Shown in pieces: positions 42,222 through 53,180 of a stretch of DNA of 64,000 bases. Every line of letters starts with the position of its first letter. The first letter of the stretch is position 1. The stretch covers positions 17,558 to 81,557 of the forward strand of contig JANDJZ010000174.1 in assembly GCA_027943245.1 (NCBI GenBank), read 5' to 3'. The position numbers were made by a program, and so were the translations under genes. This stretch comes from Acanthamoeba sp. SK_2022b. Lineage: Eukaryota > Discosea > Longamoebia > Acanthamoebidae. Below the pieces are notes generated by a model that was given only the letters and a program-made list of their open reading frames with translations, searched no databases and had not been told where the DNA came from.

Positions 42222-43278
42222 CTACTCTCGGTCGGCAAAGGGGAATAGCTCATGCCACAGGTCCTTGTCCTCGAAGGCGGTGTACTCGAGGCAGTAGTTC
42301 TTGCGGTTGCGCTCCGAGTAGAAGGTGACGTAGGGCATGATGGTCTGCGGGGCGTGGATGTCGTCTACGTCCACCTCCTCCGTTCGCGTGCGCGTGATGA
42401 GATTGTAGGTGTGCAGCACCAGCTTCTGCTTCTTCTCCGGCGACTGCAGCTGTGCGTCGGTGGACGACTGGCCCGCCTCGGCCGGCGTGCTCAGATAGGC
42501 CTTGGTCACGTAGCCCTTCGTCAGGTGATTCAGCAGCGCCGTCGTGCTCACACCAAAGAACAACGCTGCCAACAGCGACAACAAGATGGCATCGTGATAA
42601 AGGACTCGATGAGCTATCATCAAACTTCACTGGTCGGATGCTCCAGCGACAGCGACAGCAACAGCGGCGGCGGCGATGTACCGGTCAGGCCCAGAGCGGA
42701 GCGGCCGAGCAGGGGCACGTCGGGATTGCCGAACATGACCAGGATGGGCGTGCCGGCGAGGGAGGCCAAGCACGTCGTCAGCGAGAAGAGCTTGAGCCCG
42801 CGCAGAATCCTAAGGAGAGCGTGTGATCGCCGCACATCAGCAAAGGCCGTGTCATGTGGCCCAAGAGTAGGCGCGAGCAGCGAGGATCGTTGGTATCGTA
42901 CCCCTTCTTAGGCGCGTCGTAGATCAGCTCCACCTTGTCAGTGGCCGCATTCACCTGTGCGTCGCGTTGATCCTCGCTTTGTTCTCCGTTGGACTGCTTA
43001 TCGCTGCTTGGTGCCGTTTCTGCTGCGGGGCTCGTGGAGTAGAGGCGGACAGCATGGCTCCTGAACGAAAATCGCGAGTTGATGGTCGAAGGTCGCTGTG
43101 CGAGCAGCGAGATGTTCCTTCGCAAATGGAGAGCAGGAGACGGGCCGGCAGATCGGCTGTAGAGGGTGGAAGAATCACCCACGATTCCTGGAATCGCCGA
43201 TCGATTTGCACCCTGCCTCATCGTAATACATGACGGCCTCAGCTTGAAGCTGGAACTGCACCCTCTTACCGCCTTCAT
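42222..43278 (-). CDS. TMEM70-like mitochondrial inner-membrane protein
   Basis: TMEM70 family proteins are inner-membrane assembly factors for ATP synthase and complex I. The ATG at 43276-43278 gives a basic, Ser-rich, non-acidic start (MKAVRGCSSSFKLRPSCITM) typical of a mitochondrial presequence; an in-frame ATG at 43363-43365 would add a hydrophobic segment and is less likely. Exon 1 ends with VELIYDAPKKGYDT, which fits the family's Y.GP/AP region ahead of the first helix. Exon 2 has ILRGLKLFSLTTCLASLAGT and PILVMFGNPDVPLLGRSALG. Exon 3 has ALFFGVSTTALLNHLTKGYV followed by TKAYLS (second helix and the family's H..TK.YV motif), then a soluble domain with LVLHTYNLITRTRTEEVDVD and stop at 42222-42224. 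The diagnostic strings agree with what I know of the family; location in mitochondria is inferred. Confidence 0.82.
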
Positions 43279-43413
43279 CACAGCTGCTGGTCCGATTAGC
43301 ACTCGTGGTGACCAACGTGAAGAAAAAAAAGAAATTGCACAAAAAAGAAAACGATAAAAATTCATTTAAATAAGACAGGCGCGAAGAACAAGGGAGATGG
43401 AAGTAACTCTCTG

Positions 43414-46400
43414 TTAGTAGATGTTGTGTTGGTGGAAGAAAGGCTTATACTTCATATCGTCCTCCATGATGTGGTGCAGAAGCCACTCGCGAAGGAATTT
43501 GGCCAGCTTGCTGAGATTGATGCTCTTGCCCTTCTGGTGCAGCTTGCAGAATTGCTCCACCTGCTCCAGCAACCTCCTAAATGGCTGGCCGTTAGATAGA
43601 CGCCCCTCCGCGCACGTCCACACTCACAGACGCGTGCGCACTTGTGTTTGCGGACATGGCCGGCCTCGTCGGGGTAGTTGAACTTTGTGAACAGCTCCTC
43701 CTCTTGCGCAAAGTGGTAGTGCGTGTAGTCGATCAGGCACTGCAACAAAGAAGAGATCTGCTGTCGTCGCTTGTCCTTCTCTTGCGTTCTATGCACGTCG
43801 GGGTCACGTGAGTGGACTCGTCGCCATCGTGGTGTGTGGGCAGGTGTGTTGAGTGTGGTACCCGATGATGGCGAAGAGAACGTTGATGTACTCCACGAGG
43901 CGCTGATGGGCCTTATCGAACTTCTTGACGCCCACGGACAGCGAGTCGGTCCACATCATCAGCGGTCGATTCTTGCCGCCACTACACCCACACAATGAAC
44001 GACTCGATGTGAGTGATTCCAGCAACTACCGTCGGTACGTCGGGCGAAGCACGAGGGGCTCACCTCTTGTCGTCAAACACGATTTCCTTCTTCAAGCTCT
44101 CGAACATGGGCTTGAACAGGCTCACTACGAACCAACGTGAAGCAACCGGTGAGTCAACATGAGCTACATGGCAACACAAGAGATAAAGGTGTGAGAACGC
44201 GCGAACCCTTGAGGTAGGACTGCACGCTGGGAGTGGCCACGTCCAACGGCGACAGATTCTTTTCGTTCAAAACGTTGGCCGAGGCTCCCCGCTTCAGGAG
44301 CGCCTTCACGATCTACGCAGAGTACGATCCCGTGAGTACAGTAGAAAGGGGAGAGAAGTGGAAAGATAATCGAAACCTTCAAGTGGTTGTGAGACGCGGC
44401 AAAGTGGAGCGCGGTGTCGCCGTTGATATCTCGCAGATCGGTCTGCGCCCCCCGCCTGTCCTCCAATAGGAGCGCCACCACCTTGGGATTGCCAACTGCG
44501 TCGACCACCGCAAATAGTGGAAGATGAATGAGTGCCATGTGGGGGCGTAGGTGACATGCGAGAGTATTTGTACTGGTGCTGGCCAGGTGAAGAGGCGTCT
44601 TCATTCTATCGTTCGCGATGTTGATGATGTCCGGCTGTGCATCAAGGATCACCTAAAAGCCAGCAGGGAGAGAGAGAGGAAACGTTTGTGCGCTTCCCAA
44701 ATGAGCAGCAGTGCGTGAGGACGTGAATGCATACCCTGAGGGCCTTGATATCCTGGCAGGCGACGACTCGGTGGACAATGCGAACGAGTTTCGTTTGCTC
44801 GATATCGCTATCCCTTCCACCTTTGGTAGCTGGGCCGGCGTCCTTTCTGGCCGAAGGCTGGATCTCGAGTGATCGCTCATAAAGCCGATCTTCATCAAAC
44901 ACCTTGATTAAGGCGTGTGCGTGGATAACACAGCGTTAGTATATGCAAATCGCAAGGCTATCAAAAAACATGAGAAAAAGATACCTCGACGCCTTGCAGG
45001 AAAGAGAGCGCAGTGTCGTTCACTTGAATCTGGTGTTGGGGCAACAGCTGATACTTGAGGACATCGGTGATGATGGTGTAGAATAGCGTCATGCGCTCGA
45101 AGTTGATCAAATCACTGCGTGAGTTTTTGCTGGATGTGAGCATCTCATGAAGAGCAGGTTGGGGCGTGGACCACGCACCCTTCCAAGAAGCTAGGATTGC
45201 CATCATTGGCGAACGTTAGGTCGCGCAACACCAAAGCTACAGTAGTGTGGGAGTAAGAAGAATCAGTCACTCGTTGCCCGAGACGCGATTGGTGCGATAG
45301 CGCAATCGTACCAATGTAAGGCGTCATCGGAGGCGCAAGCGACTCGACATGCGCGCGGTAGTTGCGGAAGTTGCTCGCTGGATCCATGTTCGATACCAGT
45401 CCATCCAGCACCTCGTGACTTCGCGCGGAGACCAACTGCCAAACGTGCGGTGAGTCTCTTTCTCCAGCGCGCGTGTGTGTGTGTGAGTGTTGCATGCGTT
45501 ACCTCCCAGGTCTGCTTGAGTCGTGAGATGGAAAAGCTGTTTAGACCCGAGATGATGTCCATGGCGGTGTTGAAGCTGTTAAGCTCCCAACAGCACTGGG
45601 CGACCCTGATGAAGGCCTCGATGGTCGCCACTCGCGACTTCTCGTCGGGCGCCGTCACGATCTCCGTTGCGACCCAGCTGCTTACCCGGTTCGAAGCTTT
45701 GGCAAAGTCGGTGATCAACCCCACTGGTCGCTTGATGTTCACCAACAGATCCAACGCTGTGATTCTGTTCAACATGGCATGATCGATGCAGGGCGTGAGC
45801 CAAAGTCGTGGCGCAAAAGGGAGCCAAGACGTGATTGAACGCGCACTTATTATAACGCTGCTGTTCCTTGAAGGCCAGGTGCAGGGCGAGCTCCTCCGAT
45901 TCGAAGTCGAGCACCGAGCCGATCTGGCCTGTGTTGGCGTTTTGCCCTTTAGACCATCAGGCTGCGTGGTACAAACGCAATCTGGGATGTACCCGACACC
46001 AGATTGCAGGTCATGTCCTTGAGCACCGAGGGATCGGATCGCCGCTTCCTGCACAACGAGCGATTGACGTCAGCCAATGAAAGAGCGCGCATACAAACAT
46101 GTGTCGACTGCTGACGCACTGGAAGCGTTGAAGGATGACGGAATCGGTAAGATCGCGCGGGGAGTTGGCCTGCTGTCTGAGACCACACAAATGCCAGGAG
46201 CGTGAGTCGGCGTCGATGCTTGATTGGACAGGTGCGAGTGGGCTGAATGGCGCAGTACCGTGTGAAGGTGGGGAATGAATGGTTGACCCGCGATTCCTTC
46301 ACCGCCGTGCTGTAATGGGAGCAGATGTGAGTTGACTGAGTATGGTACAAACATGCGAAAGCGAGAATGACGTACATGAGTTTCTTCTTCCTGGTCTGGA

Positions 46401-46422
46401 TAGTGAGCGCAACAACATACAG

Positions 46423-46488
<66 letters not shown>

Positions 46489-49400
46489 AGAGAGAGAGAG
46501 AGAACACATGAATGAAAAATCAAAGTCTGCGTCTTCAAGAGACATCAAGATGCGCTGTGGGTAGATTCGAACCACTCCGGACCTGACCCGGTCGAGTGCT
46601 TCGGTGAAGCTAGGCACTTGGTCACGAGCTACGATCGACACAAACTTGAGCAACTTGGCGCTCAGCGGTTCATCATGCGCATTGTCGTGTTCCTCTGCAG
46701 GTCGAAAAGTCAGCCACCAGAAGTATGCTATACTGGTTTCAACTTCAGGGAGGAGTGGGTACCTGGAATGGAGGCGAGATCTGCGTCGTGCGTCTCGACA
46801 CCAAAGTCCTGCAGCGCCCAGTTGACCACCCACCGGTGGATGAAATCCATCACGCTGTCGCCGTACAGTAGAGAGTTGGCCAGCGTCAGCGGTTGGAGAG
46901 AGATGAGACGTGGAGCCAGATGAAGCAGCGAGAGGGAGACATACTTGGCTGTGAACGCCTTGGTGGAGACGCTCTCCTCGCCCGAATGCAGCGAATACAT
47001 GGCCACTCTGTCCAAGAGACACAGAGAGCGAAATCAGATTCAAGCGTGGTTGAGAGGTTGGTGCGTTGCTGCATGGGTAAAGCCACATACAGAGAAGAGA
47101 TCTTCTCCAGCAGTTGCTCGGGACTGCAGTACTGGCGGTAGCACAGCAGGAAGGCATCTCTGTCGGACCATATCTTGGATAGAAGATGACAACAATCACG
47201 CGTGAGCCACTGGAGGAGACCGAGGGCGCTGCTAGACAGAGGCTTACCTCGGTCCGATTGCTGCCGGCGGAGAGGGGCTTGGAGCACACCCACTCGATGA
47301 CCTTCTCCAGCGAACCGGCGCGAAGGCTGCCCTTCTCCGAGAAAATCACCGGCGCGCGCACCTCCTCCACGTCGTGCTTCTCGATCACCTCTGCACCGCG
47401 GTGATGGTGTTGGGATTGCAGAGTGATCAGTAGAGAGAGGGAGGGAGGGAGAGAGAGAGAGTTCCTCGAGATGAGACGAGGTAGAGGCCTTACCAAGTTC
47501 GAGGTTCTTGGTGAGCGTCGCGGAATAGGCTTCGACAAACCACCGCTGCTCGGAGCGCATATCGGTGATTAGCGCCTCGACGTCGTGCTGCGGCTTGCCC
47601 TGAGGAGCGAGCAGATAGGAGGAATCAATATCGCGCAGTCGTGTCGATCACGCGTGAAAAACGGCGGCGAGCTTCCTGCGCACCATGGCGACGATGGCCT
47701 GGCCGATGGCCTCCTCGACCAAGAACGGCACGACACCGCCCAGCCTGCGCCAATTACGACTCGGTGAGAATGGCATCACGACAGCAAAAGCGAAGGCTTT
47801 GGGATTACCCGCAGTAGTAGTAGATGGCATCCTTGTGCTGGACATAAGAGGCTACGAGCTCCCTCTTCTCGTGGATCTTGTCTTGCACGAAGATGCGCTC
47901 CTCTTGGTCATGCGAGAACGCCGAGACAACTTCGTTGAGGACTCCTGTGAGCGAATGAGTGAGATGGCCATAAACGCAGGGTGCAGGCAGTCGATGATGG
48001 CAAGAAGGAGTAACCCGTCTGTATGAACTCGTCGAGCTCCTTCTGGAATAGGAAATCCTGGTCTCTGTGCCTGCAACCGTAGAACAATACCATCGAGCCC
48101 AGTGCGGCGCCTGTGGTGGAAGGAAGAGGTGAGACCTCATAGAGTAGAAATGAGCTGGTAGGCCACTTTACGAGGTGCCGATGTGTGGGCGTGCCTTGAT
48201 CGAGCATGGTCTTGCGGAGGTGGAGAAGGGAGATGGCGGTGGCCACGCCCGTGCCTAGCGCAACAAACATGAGCGGCGATTTGGCCTTGTGTTCGTTGTA
48301 TCGGAACACGCCCTTCTGTATGTTGACTGCCAACATATCTGTTCACCACGCACAACGAGAACGTTGAGCAAAGCGCCATGTGGAGCTGGCCGGTTTCTAT
48401 CGGGGTACCTTGCTTGCGGTTGAGGCGGGAGAGATAGGAGGTGGCCAATCCCTTGACAGTCCTCCCGCCGGGCGCACGCCATTCTCGACAGAGATAGATG
48501 AATCGGAGCTGCCTGCGGTGAAGCTGAACGGAGAGGCATAGACGAGTTCGAAGCAGTCAGCTCTGCGGTGTGTGCCGGTGTCACGCGTGGGTTACCTGAG
48601 GGCAGCTGATGATGGAGTAGAGCCGAGGCCGAATAAGAGGGATGAATGTGACCAGCTCGGCGAGGGTCAGACGGACTGATGAGTAGCGCAACAGAATGTC
48701 ACAGGCAGAAGGAAACTCAGCGTTGAACGACTCCCATGCAACCTGTGCGACAGCCGCGAACATGTACATGAGCGGGACTGCGCTGTGAGCAGATGCAGAG
48801 GGCTGTCGACGCACAGGATCGTCTAGGAGCAGTTGCAGCTTCTCTTTCTCAGTCGGGCTGAGCGATTGGGCAACGAAGCGGATCAGGTGCTTCGTGGGCC
48901 GCCCGAACAGGTCCAGGTATTTGGTCAACAGTTCGCTCACAGTCAGCGGCTGCGTGATCTTCAGCGGAGGCAGGCCTGGTTGTGCACGATGGCGAATTGC
49001 GCATTGGTTGTGATTCAAGTACAAGCAACAAAACTCCAACAAAACTCATTTAAATAACAGAGAATTATTAAAAAAACAAAATACGCTTACCTTCCATGGT
49101 CGGGGTGATGGTGAGCGAAGTCGTGGGATCGAGGTCGTAGAAACGCATGAATGCGGAGACCGAGCCGATGTCATTCTGAGGCAGAATGGAGATGTGATCG
49201 CCCACCTCATAGCTGAGTGGAGAAAAACGTTATGATGGTGATTGCTAGATGGCAGATGGCCACAGGCTTAACCGAATAGAGCCAGGCTCACGTACTTGAG
49301 GTTTGTGTGCTTGAGCGAGATGTCAGCTCGGTAGATGCGACGAATGTAGTTCTCGGGTGTGACCTTCTTGTTGCGCTTCAGCTTCGCATAGGCGTATCCT

Positions 49401-50413
49401 GGCGGAGCTCCTGAACGAGATTCACGCCAGTCAATCAAAACTACGCCATGTTGCGAACTCGCCCAGAACGAAGAGATCGATGGCAGTCAGGGGTAGGCAC
49501 GTTTGCGTTCGACTCGACGGGAGCTCGACATGCTTTCAGAGAGCTGAGCTGTTGCGGACTGCTCGGCGACATCGTAGAGGGCGGAGGTGATATGCAGCGG
49601 GTTCTTCTCCAAGGCCTCCCTCTCCACACCATCGATGATGCTCGAGAAGAACCCGATCATCCATGGCACGAAGGTGGTGTAGTGTCTGACGAGTGTCCGT
49701 ATGTTTGCGTCATCATTAGTCAGAACGGCCATCCACCATCGGAGCTGAACGTGTAGTACCCGTCAGGATCGAGTTCGCAACCAAGGCCAAGCTTGTAGAC
49801 ATCAGTCGCACCGAGATCCAGCAGCTTTGAATGTAGTTTCTGCATGCGGTGGTTGAGTGAACGCTCTGTGGGATCAACTAGGTGCCGGCAATGTCTGTAC
49901 CTTGGCCGCGTTGTTGAAGTCGTGTCGGGTGTTCTTGTTGCCCAGCCCGAACACGCCAAAGCGCAGATGTGCGAGACTACCTTGCGTCATTCCACACAGC
50001 GCCTCCCATGCTTTCTGTACGTGCATTCAACACACGCCCCGAAATTGAGAAGGGCTGGTCCAGGCCGAGAACAGTTCAATTTGGGGAAGTTAGTGCCTGC
50101 GTGTTCGCTGGAAAGGTCCCCGTCCCGTAGGTTGAGCAGCAGATGGCCACCAGCGATTCCTTCGTCAGCTTGTTCTGTTGCCAAGCAGCCACGGTAATAA
50201 TTAATAGAAAAAAAATAATTAAAATAGAAAAAAAACTGAACACTCTATGCAGGTACGTACCACGTCGTATTGATCGAAGGGAAGGAGGCGGGCAGTGAGT
50301 CCGTGCTTGCGAGCCACAAAGGCCAAGCGTCCACCCAACTCTTCGGCGCTTCCAGTTTGGGTGCCCACAAGGATCAACAGCTCCTCTCCTCTTCGCTGTT
50401 CTGTTTCTTCCAT
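43414..50413 (-). CDS. fusion protein: NADPH diflavin reductase, RasGEF, ankyrin repeats, hemerythrin
   Basis: Predicted cytosolic signalling protein of roughly 1,500 residues (estimate). ATG at 50411-50413; an in-frame ATG at 50594-50596 is the alternative. FMN domain: ILVGTQTGSAEELGGRLAFV, CCSTYGTGTFPANT, LRFGVFGLGNKNTRHDF. FAD/NADPH domain: NLKYEVGDHISILPQND, RPRLYSIISCP, LMFVALGTGVATAISLLHLR, MVLFYGCRHRDQDFLFQKEL, ERIFVQDKI, AIYYYCG. At 47660-47580 the reductase end RRKLAA is joined phase 0 to GKPQHDVEALITDMRSEQRW, then by a phase-1 intron to a RasGEF N-domain (GSLRAGSLEKVIEWVC; DRDAFLLCYRQYCSPEQLLE). RasGEF core: VLDFESEELALHLAF, ITALDLLVNIKRPVG, QCCWELNSFNTAMDIISGLN, LTFANDGNPSFLEG. Ankyrin: DRMKTPLHLAS, DINGDTALHFAASHNHLK. 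Hemerythrin: KAHQRL, HYHFAQEEE, GHVRKHK, HHIMEDDMKY; stop 43414-43416. Confidence 0.85.
46424..46502. repeat. (CA)n then (GA)n microsatellite in a RasGEF-region intron
   Basis: About 60 bp of CA followed by about 17 bp of GA on the plus strand, inside an intron of the fusion gene between the RasGEF N-domain and the catalytic domain. The arrangement copies that at 16334-16410. Confidence 0.95.
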
Positions 50414-50614: not shown

Positions 50615-52964
50615 TTACAGCTCGATGTCTTCTCGCGCCTTCTCGAGGAAGCCCATCGCTGAGGCCAGCTCTTTCATCTGGTCCTGCACGTTATCGCCGT
50701 TAGCGCAGCCAACGGCGACGCCAAGGCGCGGCCCCCAACAAAGGGGGCACGTACTCTGTAGCCGGCGGCGATGAGCTCCAGGCAGATGTCGTTGTAGTTG
50801 TCCTTGATGAACACCTGCAGGCTGGCGACTCCGATCTTATCGCTCTGCGGGCCACAAATTCGTTGTCGTGGTGCGCATGCACGCGCGTTTGTGAGCGGGA
50901 GAGCGCAGATTCTACGCGGTGCGCTGAGGTAAATACCTTGTTGGGCATGGGGATGTTCTTGCCCTCGCTGCTGATCAGCCGCTGCAGGATGGCCACCACG
51001 CCAGGATTGGTTTCCACCAGCTGTGAAAAAAAGTACATGTAGCAATTCGTGAGCGACAAACCTCACCACTGAAGAGAGCTCTATTCAGTGAATACCTCGA
51101 TGAGCGGATCGTAGATGGCGTCTCGTTCTTCTTGGAGAGCCATTGCCTGTTTGTGTACGACACACAAAAAAAGAGGTTAGAAGTGGAATCCCATCTGGCC
51201 GTGACGCACAAACCACAGTGCGCGTGCCTGCTCTTCGGATCGCTTCTGGACCGACTCGTGGAAAAAGGTTTTCATCTCCTCGGCCCACGTCGTGAGCTCC
51301 TCCTGCCGAACCAAAGATTCAAGGTTGATCGTTGTTATTATTGTTATTATGATTCGATGAAGAAGGCCGAGCGTACGAGATAGCTTTCGAGATGTTGCAC
51401 GATGACGAAACACTCTCCAAAAGCATCCTGCAGGACGAAGCAAAACCAGGAGTATTATTATATCGAAAATAAAATAAAATAAAATAAAATGGAATAGTGA
51501 GCGATGGCGTCCAATATGACACGGTTGGCGTTGTATACCCGCTCCTGTTGGAAATAGAGGATGAGCCATTCGATTAAGCTGCAGCTCTTCTTGAGTTCGA
51601 TGTCTTCTAGCTTATAGTGGACCTCATTGAGTGCGTCCTCGTAGGCCTTCTTTAATCGCTTCAGGTCACGCTCGGCCTAAACCAACCTAGCGCAGTCAGC
51701 ACTTGGCATTCGAGGCACCTGTTGAGGCGAGCAGGGGCGCACGTTGTAGAGTTTGATGATGTCCAGTTTGGACTTGGCACGAAGACAGGTCACCTTATCC
51801 ACTGCGCCGTCGTAGTCGCGTCTCGCCTTCTCGTACTTGGCTTTGATGCTCTGCGTGCGTGGGAACGTTGGATTGGATCAGCAAACAAGCACGCAAGCTA
51901 GTGCAGGAGGATTGGAGCGCCAACCTTGAGTTCGGTGGAGATGTCCTTGTCGATGAACTCGGTGATTCGCGCAATGAGCTGGTCGGACGGCACTTGATGC
52001 TGCGCAGCAATTGAAAGCGATCGCGTACACGTAGGGGGGAGAGAGAGAGATAAGCTTCGCCTTCATGTAAGCCACGCACAAGGAGCGATGCACGCACGAA
52101 TTGGGTCACGTTCGTGGCGAGGTTTCTCTCCGCTTCGGCAAACCTGGTCAGCGCCTCAGCTAGAGAATTCATGCATAGGAGAAGACGTGAGTACAGGCAG
52201 CGGCGCACTGACACCAAATGCGAAAGAGGGAAGGTTGTTGGCTTCTCGCACCATAGACAGAGTCTGGGTTGGACCTCTTCTCCGCAATATGCAGCTTGTC
52301 CATTCCATCCTGGGCAAACGCGTTGTTGGCCTTGGTGTAACCTAGGCACAACACCACACAGCGTGGACATGAGCCCACCGTCCATGAAGAAGTGCACATT
52401 CACACATACACGCACCACACAGCACATGGTGGGTGAACAAGACATACGTAGAGCGTCGGTGTTGAGTCGGCGGATGGTGGCGACGAGCTTCTTGAGGTGG
52501 CTCTTGAGCTGCTGGACCTGGTCGTCCCGGTTCTTGACTTCGGTGTCGGCGTCCAGCTGGAAATGGCCGGCTTCGTCAGGCTCCTCTATGGCCAGCTTCC
52601 CAATCAGACGCGTGGTGCGATTAGACCGAGAGAATGGCCCGGGCGATGGTGATTGAGGAGGCGAGGGTGATTTTCGAGGGATTTGATAAGATTTTCGTGA
52701 CGAGAGTGTGGGAGATAAAGTTGCTTGTGGCAGAGAGGTGGGGGATGAGAAAGAAGTTGAGGAGGCGAGAGGCGAGGTGGAAGGCATGGGCGAATCCGGT
52801 TGTTCGCTGTGAGGAGCAGGCGAGCCGGAAGGAGAGCTCGTGGGTGAGAGAACAGGGCTTTGCTCGAGGATGGAGTCACTCTGCAAATTGATTCCATCTC
52901 GCTTCTTCTTTTTCTCTAAATTGCGCGACGAGGCATTCGAACGTAGCGTCATGAAGCCCTTCAT
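50615..52964 (-). CDS. BAR-domain protein with Ser/Pro-rich N-terminus
   Basis: Likely membrane-curvature protein. ATG at 52962-52964 (MKGFMTLRSNASSRNLEKKK). The first exon is a Ser/Pro-rich, probably phosphorylated segment with many SPSPP-like strings up to about 52610. It is followed by DRDDQVQQLKSHLKKL-type coil and a BAR domain of the ACAP/ASAP-like kind: ALTRFAEAERNLATNVTQF, STELKSIKAKYEKARRDYDG, LRAKSKLDIIKLYNAERDLK, LKKSCSLIEWLILYFQQERV and LESYLVEELTTWAEEMKTFF. The C-terminal part reads LIELVETNPGVVAILQRLIS, then GVASLQVFIKDNYNDICLEL and ASAMGFLEKAREDIEL, with stop at 50615-50617. No ArfGAP, PH or SH3 domain follows. About nine short introns. The next gene on the same strand starts only 18-202 bp downstream. 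Confidence 0.82.
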
Positions 52965-53180
52965 CTTGTGAGTAGATTATTTGATCTTTTTAAAGCTGCC
53001 TCAGTGGCGTTCAAGTGTGAGCGACAGGGCAGACCTGAAACTGGTTTACGGCGGCGAAGTGCTCGCCACCAAAAGAAATACACGGGTTCGCCCACCTCAT
53101 CACCACAAGCGGTCGCCCATTGGCTCCCGCTGCCGAGATCGGCCGATAGTGGCCGATAGTGCCGGGCCGTTGCGTGGCTG

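What the first reader, a model, noticed from the sequence alone, without database searches (positions are those of the whole stretch)
43414..50413. A diflavin reductase fused to RasGEF, ankyrin repeats and hemerythrin
One minus-strand gene appears to encode a complete NADPH-FAD-FMN reductase, a RasGEF N-domain and catalytic domain, ankyrin repeats and a C-terminal hemerythrin domain. Each domain is supported by several motifs in the right order. I know of no described protein that couples these four. A diiron centre that binds O2 or NO, an attached electron source to reduce it, and a Ras activator in one chain would make a self-contained redox or gas sensor with a GTPase output. The function is inference; the domain order is read from the sequence.
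Basis: partly seen in the sequence, partly recalled or inferred. Interest (0 to 1): 0.93.

Follow-up and report, generated by a model that had tools for sequence, protein, structure and literature searches.

The report
Amoeba Ras activator with redox domains
One amoeba gene appears to join, in a single protein, an electron-supplying enzyme, a switch that turns on Ras signalling, a docking region and an oxygen-binding iron domain, which would be a new way to tie oxygen or redox state to Ras signalling if the protein is made as predicted.

Summary
The minus strand 50413..43414 splices into one open frame of 37 exons (34 GT-AG and 2 GC-AG introns; 1,367 aa): flavodoxin, FAD and NAD(P) modules, a RasGEF_N-like region (below Pfam's cut-off), RasGEF, ankyrin repeats and C-terminal hemerythrin. 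The junctions rest on different evidence. Reductase/RasGEF_N: an annotated A. castellanii Neff protein, 87% identical, crosses it with the same splice. RasGEF/ankyrin: both in one exon. Ankyrin/hemerythrin: only a strongly coding 61-nt linker exon (0 of 4000 shuffles as good); this is the weakest, and a survey reports Neff O2-binding hemerythrin only as single-domain. The hemerythrin is bacteriohemerythrin type with 7 of 7 iron ligands. The reductase is full length but altered at NADPH-site and C-terminal positions that 14 of 14 aligned relatives keep, so NADPH use is unproven. Best reading: a soluble RasGEF gated by O2/redox state with a built-in flavin reductase. Architecture about 0.83; mechanism inferred. 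No transcript evidence. Ten paper searches, judged from listings, showed no description of it. New variant of known sensor-output fusions.

The parts
43414..50413 (-). whole gene model, 37 exons, 1,367 aa. Exons (high..low): 50413-50261, 50174-50097, 50014-49901, 49839-49760, 49685-49501, 49410-49296, 49212-49091, 48975-48815, 48742-48596, 48523-48409, 48338-48195, 48110-48015, 47944-47809, 47744-47684, 47599-47494, 47390-47248, 47173-47091, 47007-46945, 46854-46763, 46694-46583, 46390-46376, 46309-46259, 46176-46120, 46048-45993, 45928-45847, 45764-45503, 45435-45312, 45236-45179, 45114-44985, 44902-44735, 44652-44574, 44495-44377, 44312-44207, 44124-44064, 43981-43862, 43788-43642, 43576-43414
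   Evidence: open frame, 34 GT-AG and 2 GC-AG introns
49501..50413 (-). exons 1-5: flavodoxin (FMN) domain, aa 14-147; no N-terminal membrane anchor
   Evidence: Pfam Flavodoxin_1 5e-25; CPR alignment from query residue 5
48409..49410 (-). exons 6-10: FAD-binding domain, aa 211-415
   Evidence: Pfam FAD_binding_1 1.6e-32
47494..48338 (-). exons 11-15: NAD(P)-binding module and C-terminal strand (C548, E592, Y594 at rat CPR C630, D675, W677 positions; rat numbers recalled)
   Evidence: NAD_binding_1 36.1 bits vs cut-off 22
47390..47599 (-). junction 1, reductase to RasGEF_N (exon 15/16)
   Evidence: same splice in A. castellanii Neff protein P0032; no stop for 202 codons if unspliced, no upstream in-frame ATG
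46763..47390 (-). exons 16-19: RasGEF_N (REM)-like region
   Evidence: 23.3 bits, below cut-off 28.3; Neff P0032 21.3 bits
44985..45928 (-). exons 25-29: RasGEF (CDC25 homology) catalytic domain
   Evidence: Pfam 2.1e-47; PDB best 2ije 9.6e-31, Rap GEF 4 9e-27, SOS
44735..44902 (-). exon 30, junction 2: the end of the RasGEF homology and the start of the ankyrin region in one uninterrupted exon
   Evidence: 2ije aligned to its first residues; Ank_2 starts in it; exon map
44207..44902 (-). exons 30-33: ankyrin repeats
   Evidence: Pfam Ank 5.3e-15, Ank_2 4.5e-14
44064..44124 (-). exon 34, junction 3: 61-nt linker exon
   Evidence: coding score 1.19 bits/codon vs maximum 0.12 in 508 stop-free intron windows; 0 of 4000 shuffles reach the observed path score; splice-site scores moderate, acceptor of intron 34 at the 71st percentile
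43414..43981 (-). exons 35-37: bacteriohemerythrin-type domain; ligands H1250, H1290, E1294, H1309, H1313, H1349, D1354
   Evidence: NF033749 125.6 bits vs cut-off 84; DcrH domain 2avk 2.1e-17; positions checked

Best explanation
One Acanthamoeba-type gene encodes a soluble ~1,367-aa protein: CPR-like diflavin reductase, RasGEF_N-like region and RasGEF, ankyrin repeats, bacteriohemerythrin (architecture: shown at DNA level, about 0.83). Most likely it is a Ras- or Rap-family exchange factor whose activity is set by the state of the diiron centre, as Bhr-DGC ties diguanylate cyclase activity to the diferrous versus diferric state. O2 would oxidise the centre; the attached reductase would use NAD(P)H through FAD and FMN to return it to diferrous, or would signal NAD(P)H supply directly through its C-terminal strand, which lies about 35 residues before the RasGEF_N-like region. 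Ankyrin repeats would place the protein or its partner. Every step after the architecture is inference.
For: Open spliced frame across the locus. Domain hits. Junction 1 conserved in A. castellanii Neff P0032, 87% identical. Junction 2 within one exon. Junction 3: linker exon strongly coding in the required frame. Hemerythrin: 7 of 7 ligands align with the DcrH sensor domain. Bacteriohemerythrin matches in the 45-Mb assembly are exons of this gene only: 4 of 4 with the protein at E 1, 3 of 3 with NF033749 at E 0.1, each under the cut-off because introns split the domain. Precedent: Bhr-DGC diferrous about 10-fold more active than diferric (PMC9388753, passages). Reductase: CPR 3wkt 1.3e-60; Foldseek of the Neff relative's model to human CPR 8.7e-38.
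Against: No transcript or protein evidence. The only annotated relative found stops inside RasGEF_N (P0032), and a survey of annotated genomes lists A. castellanii Neff O2-binding hemerythrin only as single-domain (PMC4919030, passages), so the published annotation does not show the full fusion. Reductase positions constant in 14 of 14 relatives are altered. About 640 residues separate reductase and hemerythrin in sequence; no evidence of electron transfer between them. RasGEF_N is sub-threshold. None of 30 hits in the whole-protein search shows the combination by its listed Pfam domains.
Confidence: 0.55

Rival explanations
1. The hemerythrin is a separate gene: the RasGEF-ankyrin gene ends at the in-frame stop at 44156 after reading past the exon 33 donor, and a hemerythrin gene starts at the ATG at 44107 (exon 34) or at the MM of exon 35.
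For: In-frame stop 17 codons past donor 33 and an ATG in exon 34. The MMWTDSLSVGV stretch looks like the natural start of a free bacteriohemerythrin (recalled). PMC4919030 reports Neff O2-binding hemerythrin only as single-domain. The gap it needs, about 46 nt, may not be unusual: the downstream neighbour has an in-frame ATG at 43365, only 48 nt after this gene's stop, besides the one at about 43278 that I prefer.
Against: The 17 read-through codons score -20 bits as coding; exon 34 scores +23 in the fusion frame, of which +4.8 for the five codons before the ATG. The gap upstream of the gene is about 200 nt (end of the neighbour read by eye).
Confidence: 0.15
2. The reductase part is a regulatory nucleotide- or flavin-binding domain, or one that uses NADH, and not an electron donor to the diiron centre; the protein senses NAD(P)H and O2 through two independent domains. 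(Not exclusive of the best explanation's architecture.)
For: SR to SH, K to R and Y to F in the NADP 2'-phosphate motif, terminal W to Y, GPGTGxAP to ALGTGVAT, and Tyr to Thr in GLGxxxY; the Neff relative has the same changes. Reductase and hemerythrin lie at opposite ends.
Against: Equivalents of CPR Ser457 and Cys630, the FAD RxYS motif and the FMN loop Tyr67 are kept; the FAD/NADP half of the Neff relative is modelled with pLDDT mostly 80-95.
Confidence: 0.28
3. Hemerythrin as an iron sensor, as in FBXL5 or BRUTUS/HRZ, not as an O2 sensor.
For: Eukaryotic HHE domains in multidomain regulators sense iron (recalled); Naegleria hemerythrin falls sharply under iron starvation (PMC7326272, passages).
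Against: The domain passes the bacteriohemerythrin subfamily cut-off with all seven ligands; in PMC4919030 the human structures (FBXL5, by recall) give no significant match to the O2-binding family (passage).
Confidence: 0.12
4. Assembly artefact joining unrelated genes, for instance at the (TG)n run in intron 20 (about 46500-46424).
For: Simple repeat inside the locus; the assembly contains a contig that looks bacterial, C309.
Against: No N in the window; the repeat lies between RasGEF_N and RasGEF, which belong together in that order; Neff confirms junction 1 independently; junction 2 is inside an exon.
Confidence: 0.03

Closest known systems
NADPH-cytochrome P450 reductase and other diflavin reductases (NOS reductase, P450 BM3, CysJ)
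   Same: FMN, FAD and NAD(P) modules in the same order; nearest solved sequences are CPRs (1.3e-60); fusion to a partner as in BM3 and NOS
   Different: No membrane anchor; partner is a RasGEF; several NADPH-site and C-terminal residues changed; the Neff relative is 23-28% identical to 14 database relatives; far below the CysJ cut-off (199.7 vs 668 bits)
Hemerythrin-domain sensors DcrH and Bhr-DGC (bacteria)
   Same: Bacterial-type hemerythrin in one chain with a signalling output; DcrH also has it at the C terminus (PMC9388753, passages)
   Different: Output is a eukaryotic RasGEF; carries a flavin reductase; eukaryote
RasGEFs of the RasGRF/Epac/SOS type
   Same: RasGEF_N-like region plus complete RasGEF domain; best PDB match 2ije (RasGRF1 by recall); Epac is a GEF gated by a small-molecule domain (recalled)
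   Different: Neighbouring domains are of redox/gas type; ankyrin repeats
A. castellanii Neff 'FAD binding domain containing protein' (P0032, 604 aa)
   Same: Probable orthologue, 87% identical; reductase runs into RasGEF_N with the same splice
   Different: The annotated model starts inside the flavodoxin domain and ends in what is intron 17 here; RasGEF, ankyrin and hemerythrin are absent from it
FBXL5 / BRUTUS-HRZ
   Same: Eukaryotic regulators with hemerythrin-like domains (recalled)
   Different: Ubiquitin ligase outputs; hemerythrin of another subgroup (recalled)

Membership tests
Diflavin reductase (CPR-like) | Flavodoxin, FAD_binding_1 and NAD_binding_1 domains in order | tested here: met
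   all above their cut-offs; NAD_binding_1 only when that part is scanned alone
Diflavin reductase (CPR-like) | Catalytic Ser/Cys/Asp at rat S457, C630, D675 (numbers and roles recalled) | tested here: inconclusive
   S379 and C548 kept, Asp is Glu592; Glu at this place also in 8 of the 14 aligned relatives
Diflavin reductase (CPR-like) | Terminal FAD-shielding Trp (rat W677) and 2'-phosphate Arg (rat R597) | tested here: not met
   Tyr594 and His515; 14 of 14 aligned relatives have W and R there
NADPH-cytochrome P450 reductase proper | N-terminal membrane anchor | tested here: not met
   the model starts 13 residues before the flavodoxin domain
RasGEF (CDC25 homology) | full RasGEF catalytic domain | tested here: met
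   2.1e-47, profile 1-180/181
RasGEF (CDC25 homology) | RasGEF_N / REM domain | tested here: inconclusive
   23.3 bits vs cut-off 28.3
RasGEF (CDC25 homology) | nucleotide exchange on a Ras-family GTPase | not testable with these tools
   no biochemical data
O2-binding bacteriohemerythrin | five His, one Glu, one Asp diiron ligands | tested here: met
   7 of 7 in alignment with 2avk
O2-binding bacteriohemerythrin | curated family score | tested here: met
   NF033749 125.6 vs 84 and TIGR02481 108.4 vs 51.75 pass; the narrower equivalog or subfamily models PRK00808 (97.4 vs 109), TIGR00058 (46.7 vs 131.85) and PRK01917 (30.1 vs 162) do not
Hemerythrin-domain sensor | hemerythrin and output domain in one polypeptide | tested here: met
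   by splice model only; no transcript
Hemerythrin-domain sensor | output changes with O2 or diiron redox state | not testable with these tools
   needs an assay
FBXL5/BRUTUS-type iron sensors | F-box or RING ubiquitin-ligase domain | tested here: not met
   none among the 11 Pfam families matched by the whole protein at E 0.01

The most novel reading that the evidence does not exclude
A self-resetting gas/redox switch for Ras in one chain: O2 (or NO) oxidises or ligates the diiron centre and changes exchange activity, and the built-in diflavin reductase spends NAD(P)H to re-reduce the centre, so that Ras activity reports the ratio of O2 to NAD(P)H without any partner reductase.
Probability: 0.28. 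Interest if true: 0.92.

Novelty: new variant of a known kind. Interest (0 to 1): 0.78.

Why it matters
Hemerythrin-gated outputs are known in bacteria (PMC9388753, passages), and diflavin reductases fused to their partners are known (recalled), but no listing of my searches showed a paper that joins either to a Ras exchange factor (listings only). A. castellanii can live under microaerophilic conditions; its genome paper found no HIF-type proteins, though it names prolyl 4-hydroxylases as likely O2 mediators and H-NOX proteins likely for NO (PMC4053784, passages). A direct O2/redox input to Ras would be a further, testable route. It would also be a natural case of a hemerythrin that carries a reductase in its own chain.

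Tried and rejected
Whole-protein search: 30 of 7,992 scored candidates pass; by their listed Pfam domains none joins reductase with RasGEF, or has hemerythrin. It could not list the Neff protein because 604 aa is under the length limit. Search with the RasGEF part (only residues 1-460 of the 763-aa piece drove it; 11 of 7,994) and with the reductase part (18 of 7,998). The ankyrin-hemerythrin end was searched in the protein set only as part, so a Neff model for that end was not found and cannot be said to be absent.

Recent transfer of the hemerythrin from bacteria: in one prokaryote scan 1 of 42 pattern stretches encodes a relative, 34% identical; with two introns inside the domain there is no sign of a recent transfer. 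The scan is of narrow reach. Viral scan: 0 of 3 stretches.

Other HHE genes in the assembly (3 places; this gene was missed because introns split the domain, so others may be missed too): C309 looks bacterial, C205 and C665 were inspected as reading frames only and are not matched by NF033749 at E 0.1. A second copy of the fusion: none among the 49 matches, in which 34 of 164 candidates were scored.

First model of exon 14 (7 aa longer, donor with the lowest score) rejected in favour of the Neff splice. A longer exon 34 through a nearer acceptor (frame seen) rejected because intron 33 would be about 43 nt, shorter than any other intron here. Structure of the spliced protein was not attempted, since the tool takes unspliced or returned proteins; the Neff relative was modelled, with low confidence for its linker and RasGEF_N part. 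No tree was made.

Full report
What is there. The window lies on contig C306 of a 44.9-Mb, 1,129-contig assembly. The nearest named relative found is a protein of Acanthamoeba castellanii Neff at 87% identity, so the source is an Acanthamoeba-like amoeba other than Neff; that is my inference. On the minus strand from 50413 to 43414 I built a splice model by hand: 37 exons, 36 introns of 61-192 nt, all acceptors AG, donors GT in 34 and GC in 2, no stop before the final TAA. Comparison with the Neff relative showed that exon 14 should end 21 nt earlier, giving 1,367 aa. Dense introns fit the genus: 6.2 per gene on average in A. castellanii (PMC4053784, passages).

Domains. NAD_binding_1 passes when that part is scanned alone, 36.1 against 22 bits, and also in the Neff protein, 37.6 bits. 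NCBIfam places the C terminus in bacteriohemerythrin NF033749, 125.6 against 84 bits, while three narrower hemerythrin models stay below their cut-offs.

Is it one gene? Junction 1, reductase to RasGEF_N: the frame after exon 15 has no stop for 202 codons if the intron is retained, and the RasGEF_N exon has no upstream in-frame ATG, so neither half has its own end or start there. Independently, Neff protein P0032 (604 aa, 'FAD binding domain containing protein') runs through the same join. P0032 then has a tail that corresponds to intron 17 here, where the two species agree at 4 of 15 residues, so it looks like an annotation that ran into an intron; it also starts inside the flavodoxin domain. 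Junction 2: the end of the RasGEF homology and the first ankyrin helix are in one 168-nt exon, number 30. Junction 3, ankyrin to hemerythrin: exons 33 and 35 cannot be spliced directly in frame; an exon such as the 61-nt exon 34 is needed. It scores 1.19 bits per codon as coding in the needed frame, above all 508 stop-free intron windows (maximum 0.12), and the read-through alternative scores -20 bits. In 4,000 dinucleotide shuffles of the 225-nt segment a legal path existed in 95% but none scored as high. The models were trained on the rest of this gene, so the figures are internal evidence, and the splice-site scores of introns 33 and 34 are only moderate (71st to 91st percentile). Against: a survey of annotated genomes found A. 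castellanii Neff O2-binding hemerythrin only as single-domain sequences, meaning at least 85% subject coverage (PMC4919030, passages and section 6). Since the only bacteriohemerythrin matches found in the present assembly are these exons, that Neff entry may be the same C terminus annotated alone. Annotation is not a transcript, and P0032 is clearly a fragmentary model, but junction 3 is the least secure. Gene spacing does not settle it: a separate hemerythrin gene starting at 44107 would leave 46 nt; the upstream gap is about 200 nt, and the downstream gap about 135 nt or, if an earlier in-frame ATG is used, 48 nt.

The reductase. Closest solved sequences are cytochrome P450 reductases (3wkt 1.3e-60), then NOS, fused P450-reductases and sulfite reductases. 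A model of the Neff relative (mean pLDDT 74.2; FAD/NADP half mostly 80-95, linker and RasGEF_N low) matches human CPR best (8.7e-38, TM 0.61). Kept: FMN-loop Tyr67, R376-Y378-S379 of the FAD motif, Cys548. Changed, in this protein and the Neff relative alike: GPGTGxAP to ALGTGVAT, SR to SH, the Tyr of GLGxxxY to Thr, terminal W to Y followed by more chain; 14 of 14 aligned relatives keep the usual residues at these places. Rat residue numbers and roles are recalled. The pattern suggests altered nucleotide use or electron flow and not a dead fold; this needs an assay.

The hemerythrin. All seven ligands align with DcrH: H1250, H1290, E1294, H1309, H1313, H1349, D1354. In Bhr-DGC the diferrous form is about ten times more active than the diferric, and activity follows redox change and not ligand binding (PMC9388753, passages).

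The RasGEF. The catalytic domain is complete by profile; best solved relatives are 2ije, Rap GEF 4 and SOS. Its target GTPase cannot be told. The assembly holds many RasGEF exons (133 matches, 150 of 164 candidates scored); no second locus with this combination appears among the 49 matches (34 of 164 candidates scored).

How it most likely works. Shown at DNA level: the architecture. Inferred: O2 or redox state of the diiron centre gates exchange; the reductase resets the centre or signals NAD(P)H. The reductase's last strand (residues 499-504 of the Neff relative) carries the aromatic residue that in CPR shields FAD (recalled) and is followed by a low-confidence linker of about 35 residues before the first RasGEF_N helix, so coupling through that strand is possible but unproven.

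Novelty. Ten paper searches listed no paper that, from title and start of abstract, describes this combination; 'RasGEF' with 'hemerythrin' and 'RasGEF' with 'flavodoxin' gave no paper at all. Only open-licence papers are held, and of the listed papers I read passages in five (PMC4919030, also one section; PMC9388753; PMC4053784; PMC7326272; PMC9928731). The parts and the sensor-output principle are known; the combination is not, as far as I could see. I rate it a new variant of a known kind.

Noticed in passing
L001 (G000:C309:66867-70283): This 433-kb contig of the same assembly looks bacterial here: intronless ORFs that look like a ytfE-type di-iron repair protein beside a cpdB-like and an fklB-like gene, an enterobacterial order (recognised by eye). 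The assembly probably contains a bacterial contaminant or symbiont.
   Followed up: partly
window 46424-46503: A long (TG)n/(TC)n simple repeat inside intron 20, the longest intron of the gene (192 nt).
   Followed up: no
window 42222-43365: Next gene downstream on the same strand, with in-frame ATGs at 43365 and about 43278, looks like a small mitochondrial membrane protein with an N-terminal targeting-like stretch; identified by eye only.
   Followed up: no
window 50615-52976: Gene upstream on the same strand, ending about 200 nt before the ATG, looks coiled-coil rich and possibly BAR-like; not searched.
   Followed up: no
P0032 (A. castellanii Neff, 604 aa): The public Neff annotation of the probable orthologue starts inside the flavodoxin domain and ends by what looks like reading into an intron, so the database entry hides the RasGEF fusion.
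   Followed up: yes
L002 (G000:C205) and L003 (G000:C665): Two further HHE-domain stretches of amoebal look, not matched by the bacteriohemerythrin profile NF033749.
   Followed up: partly
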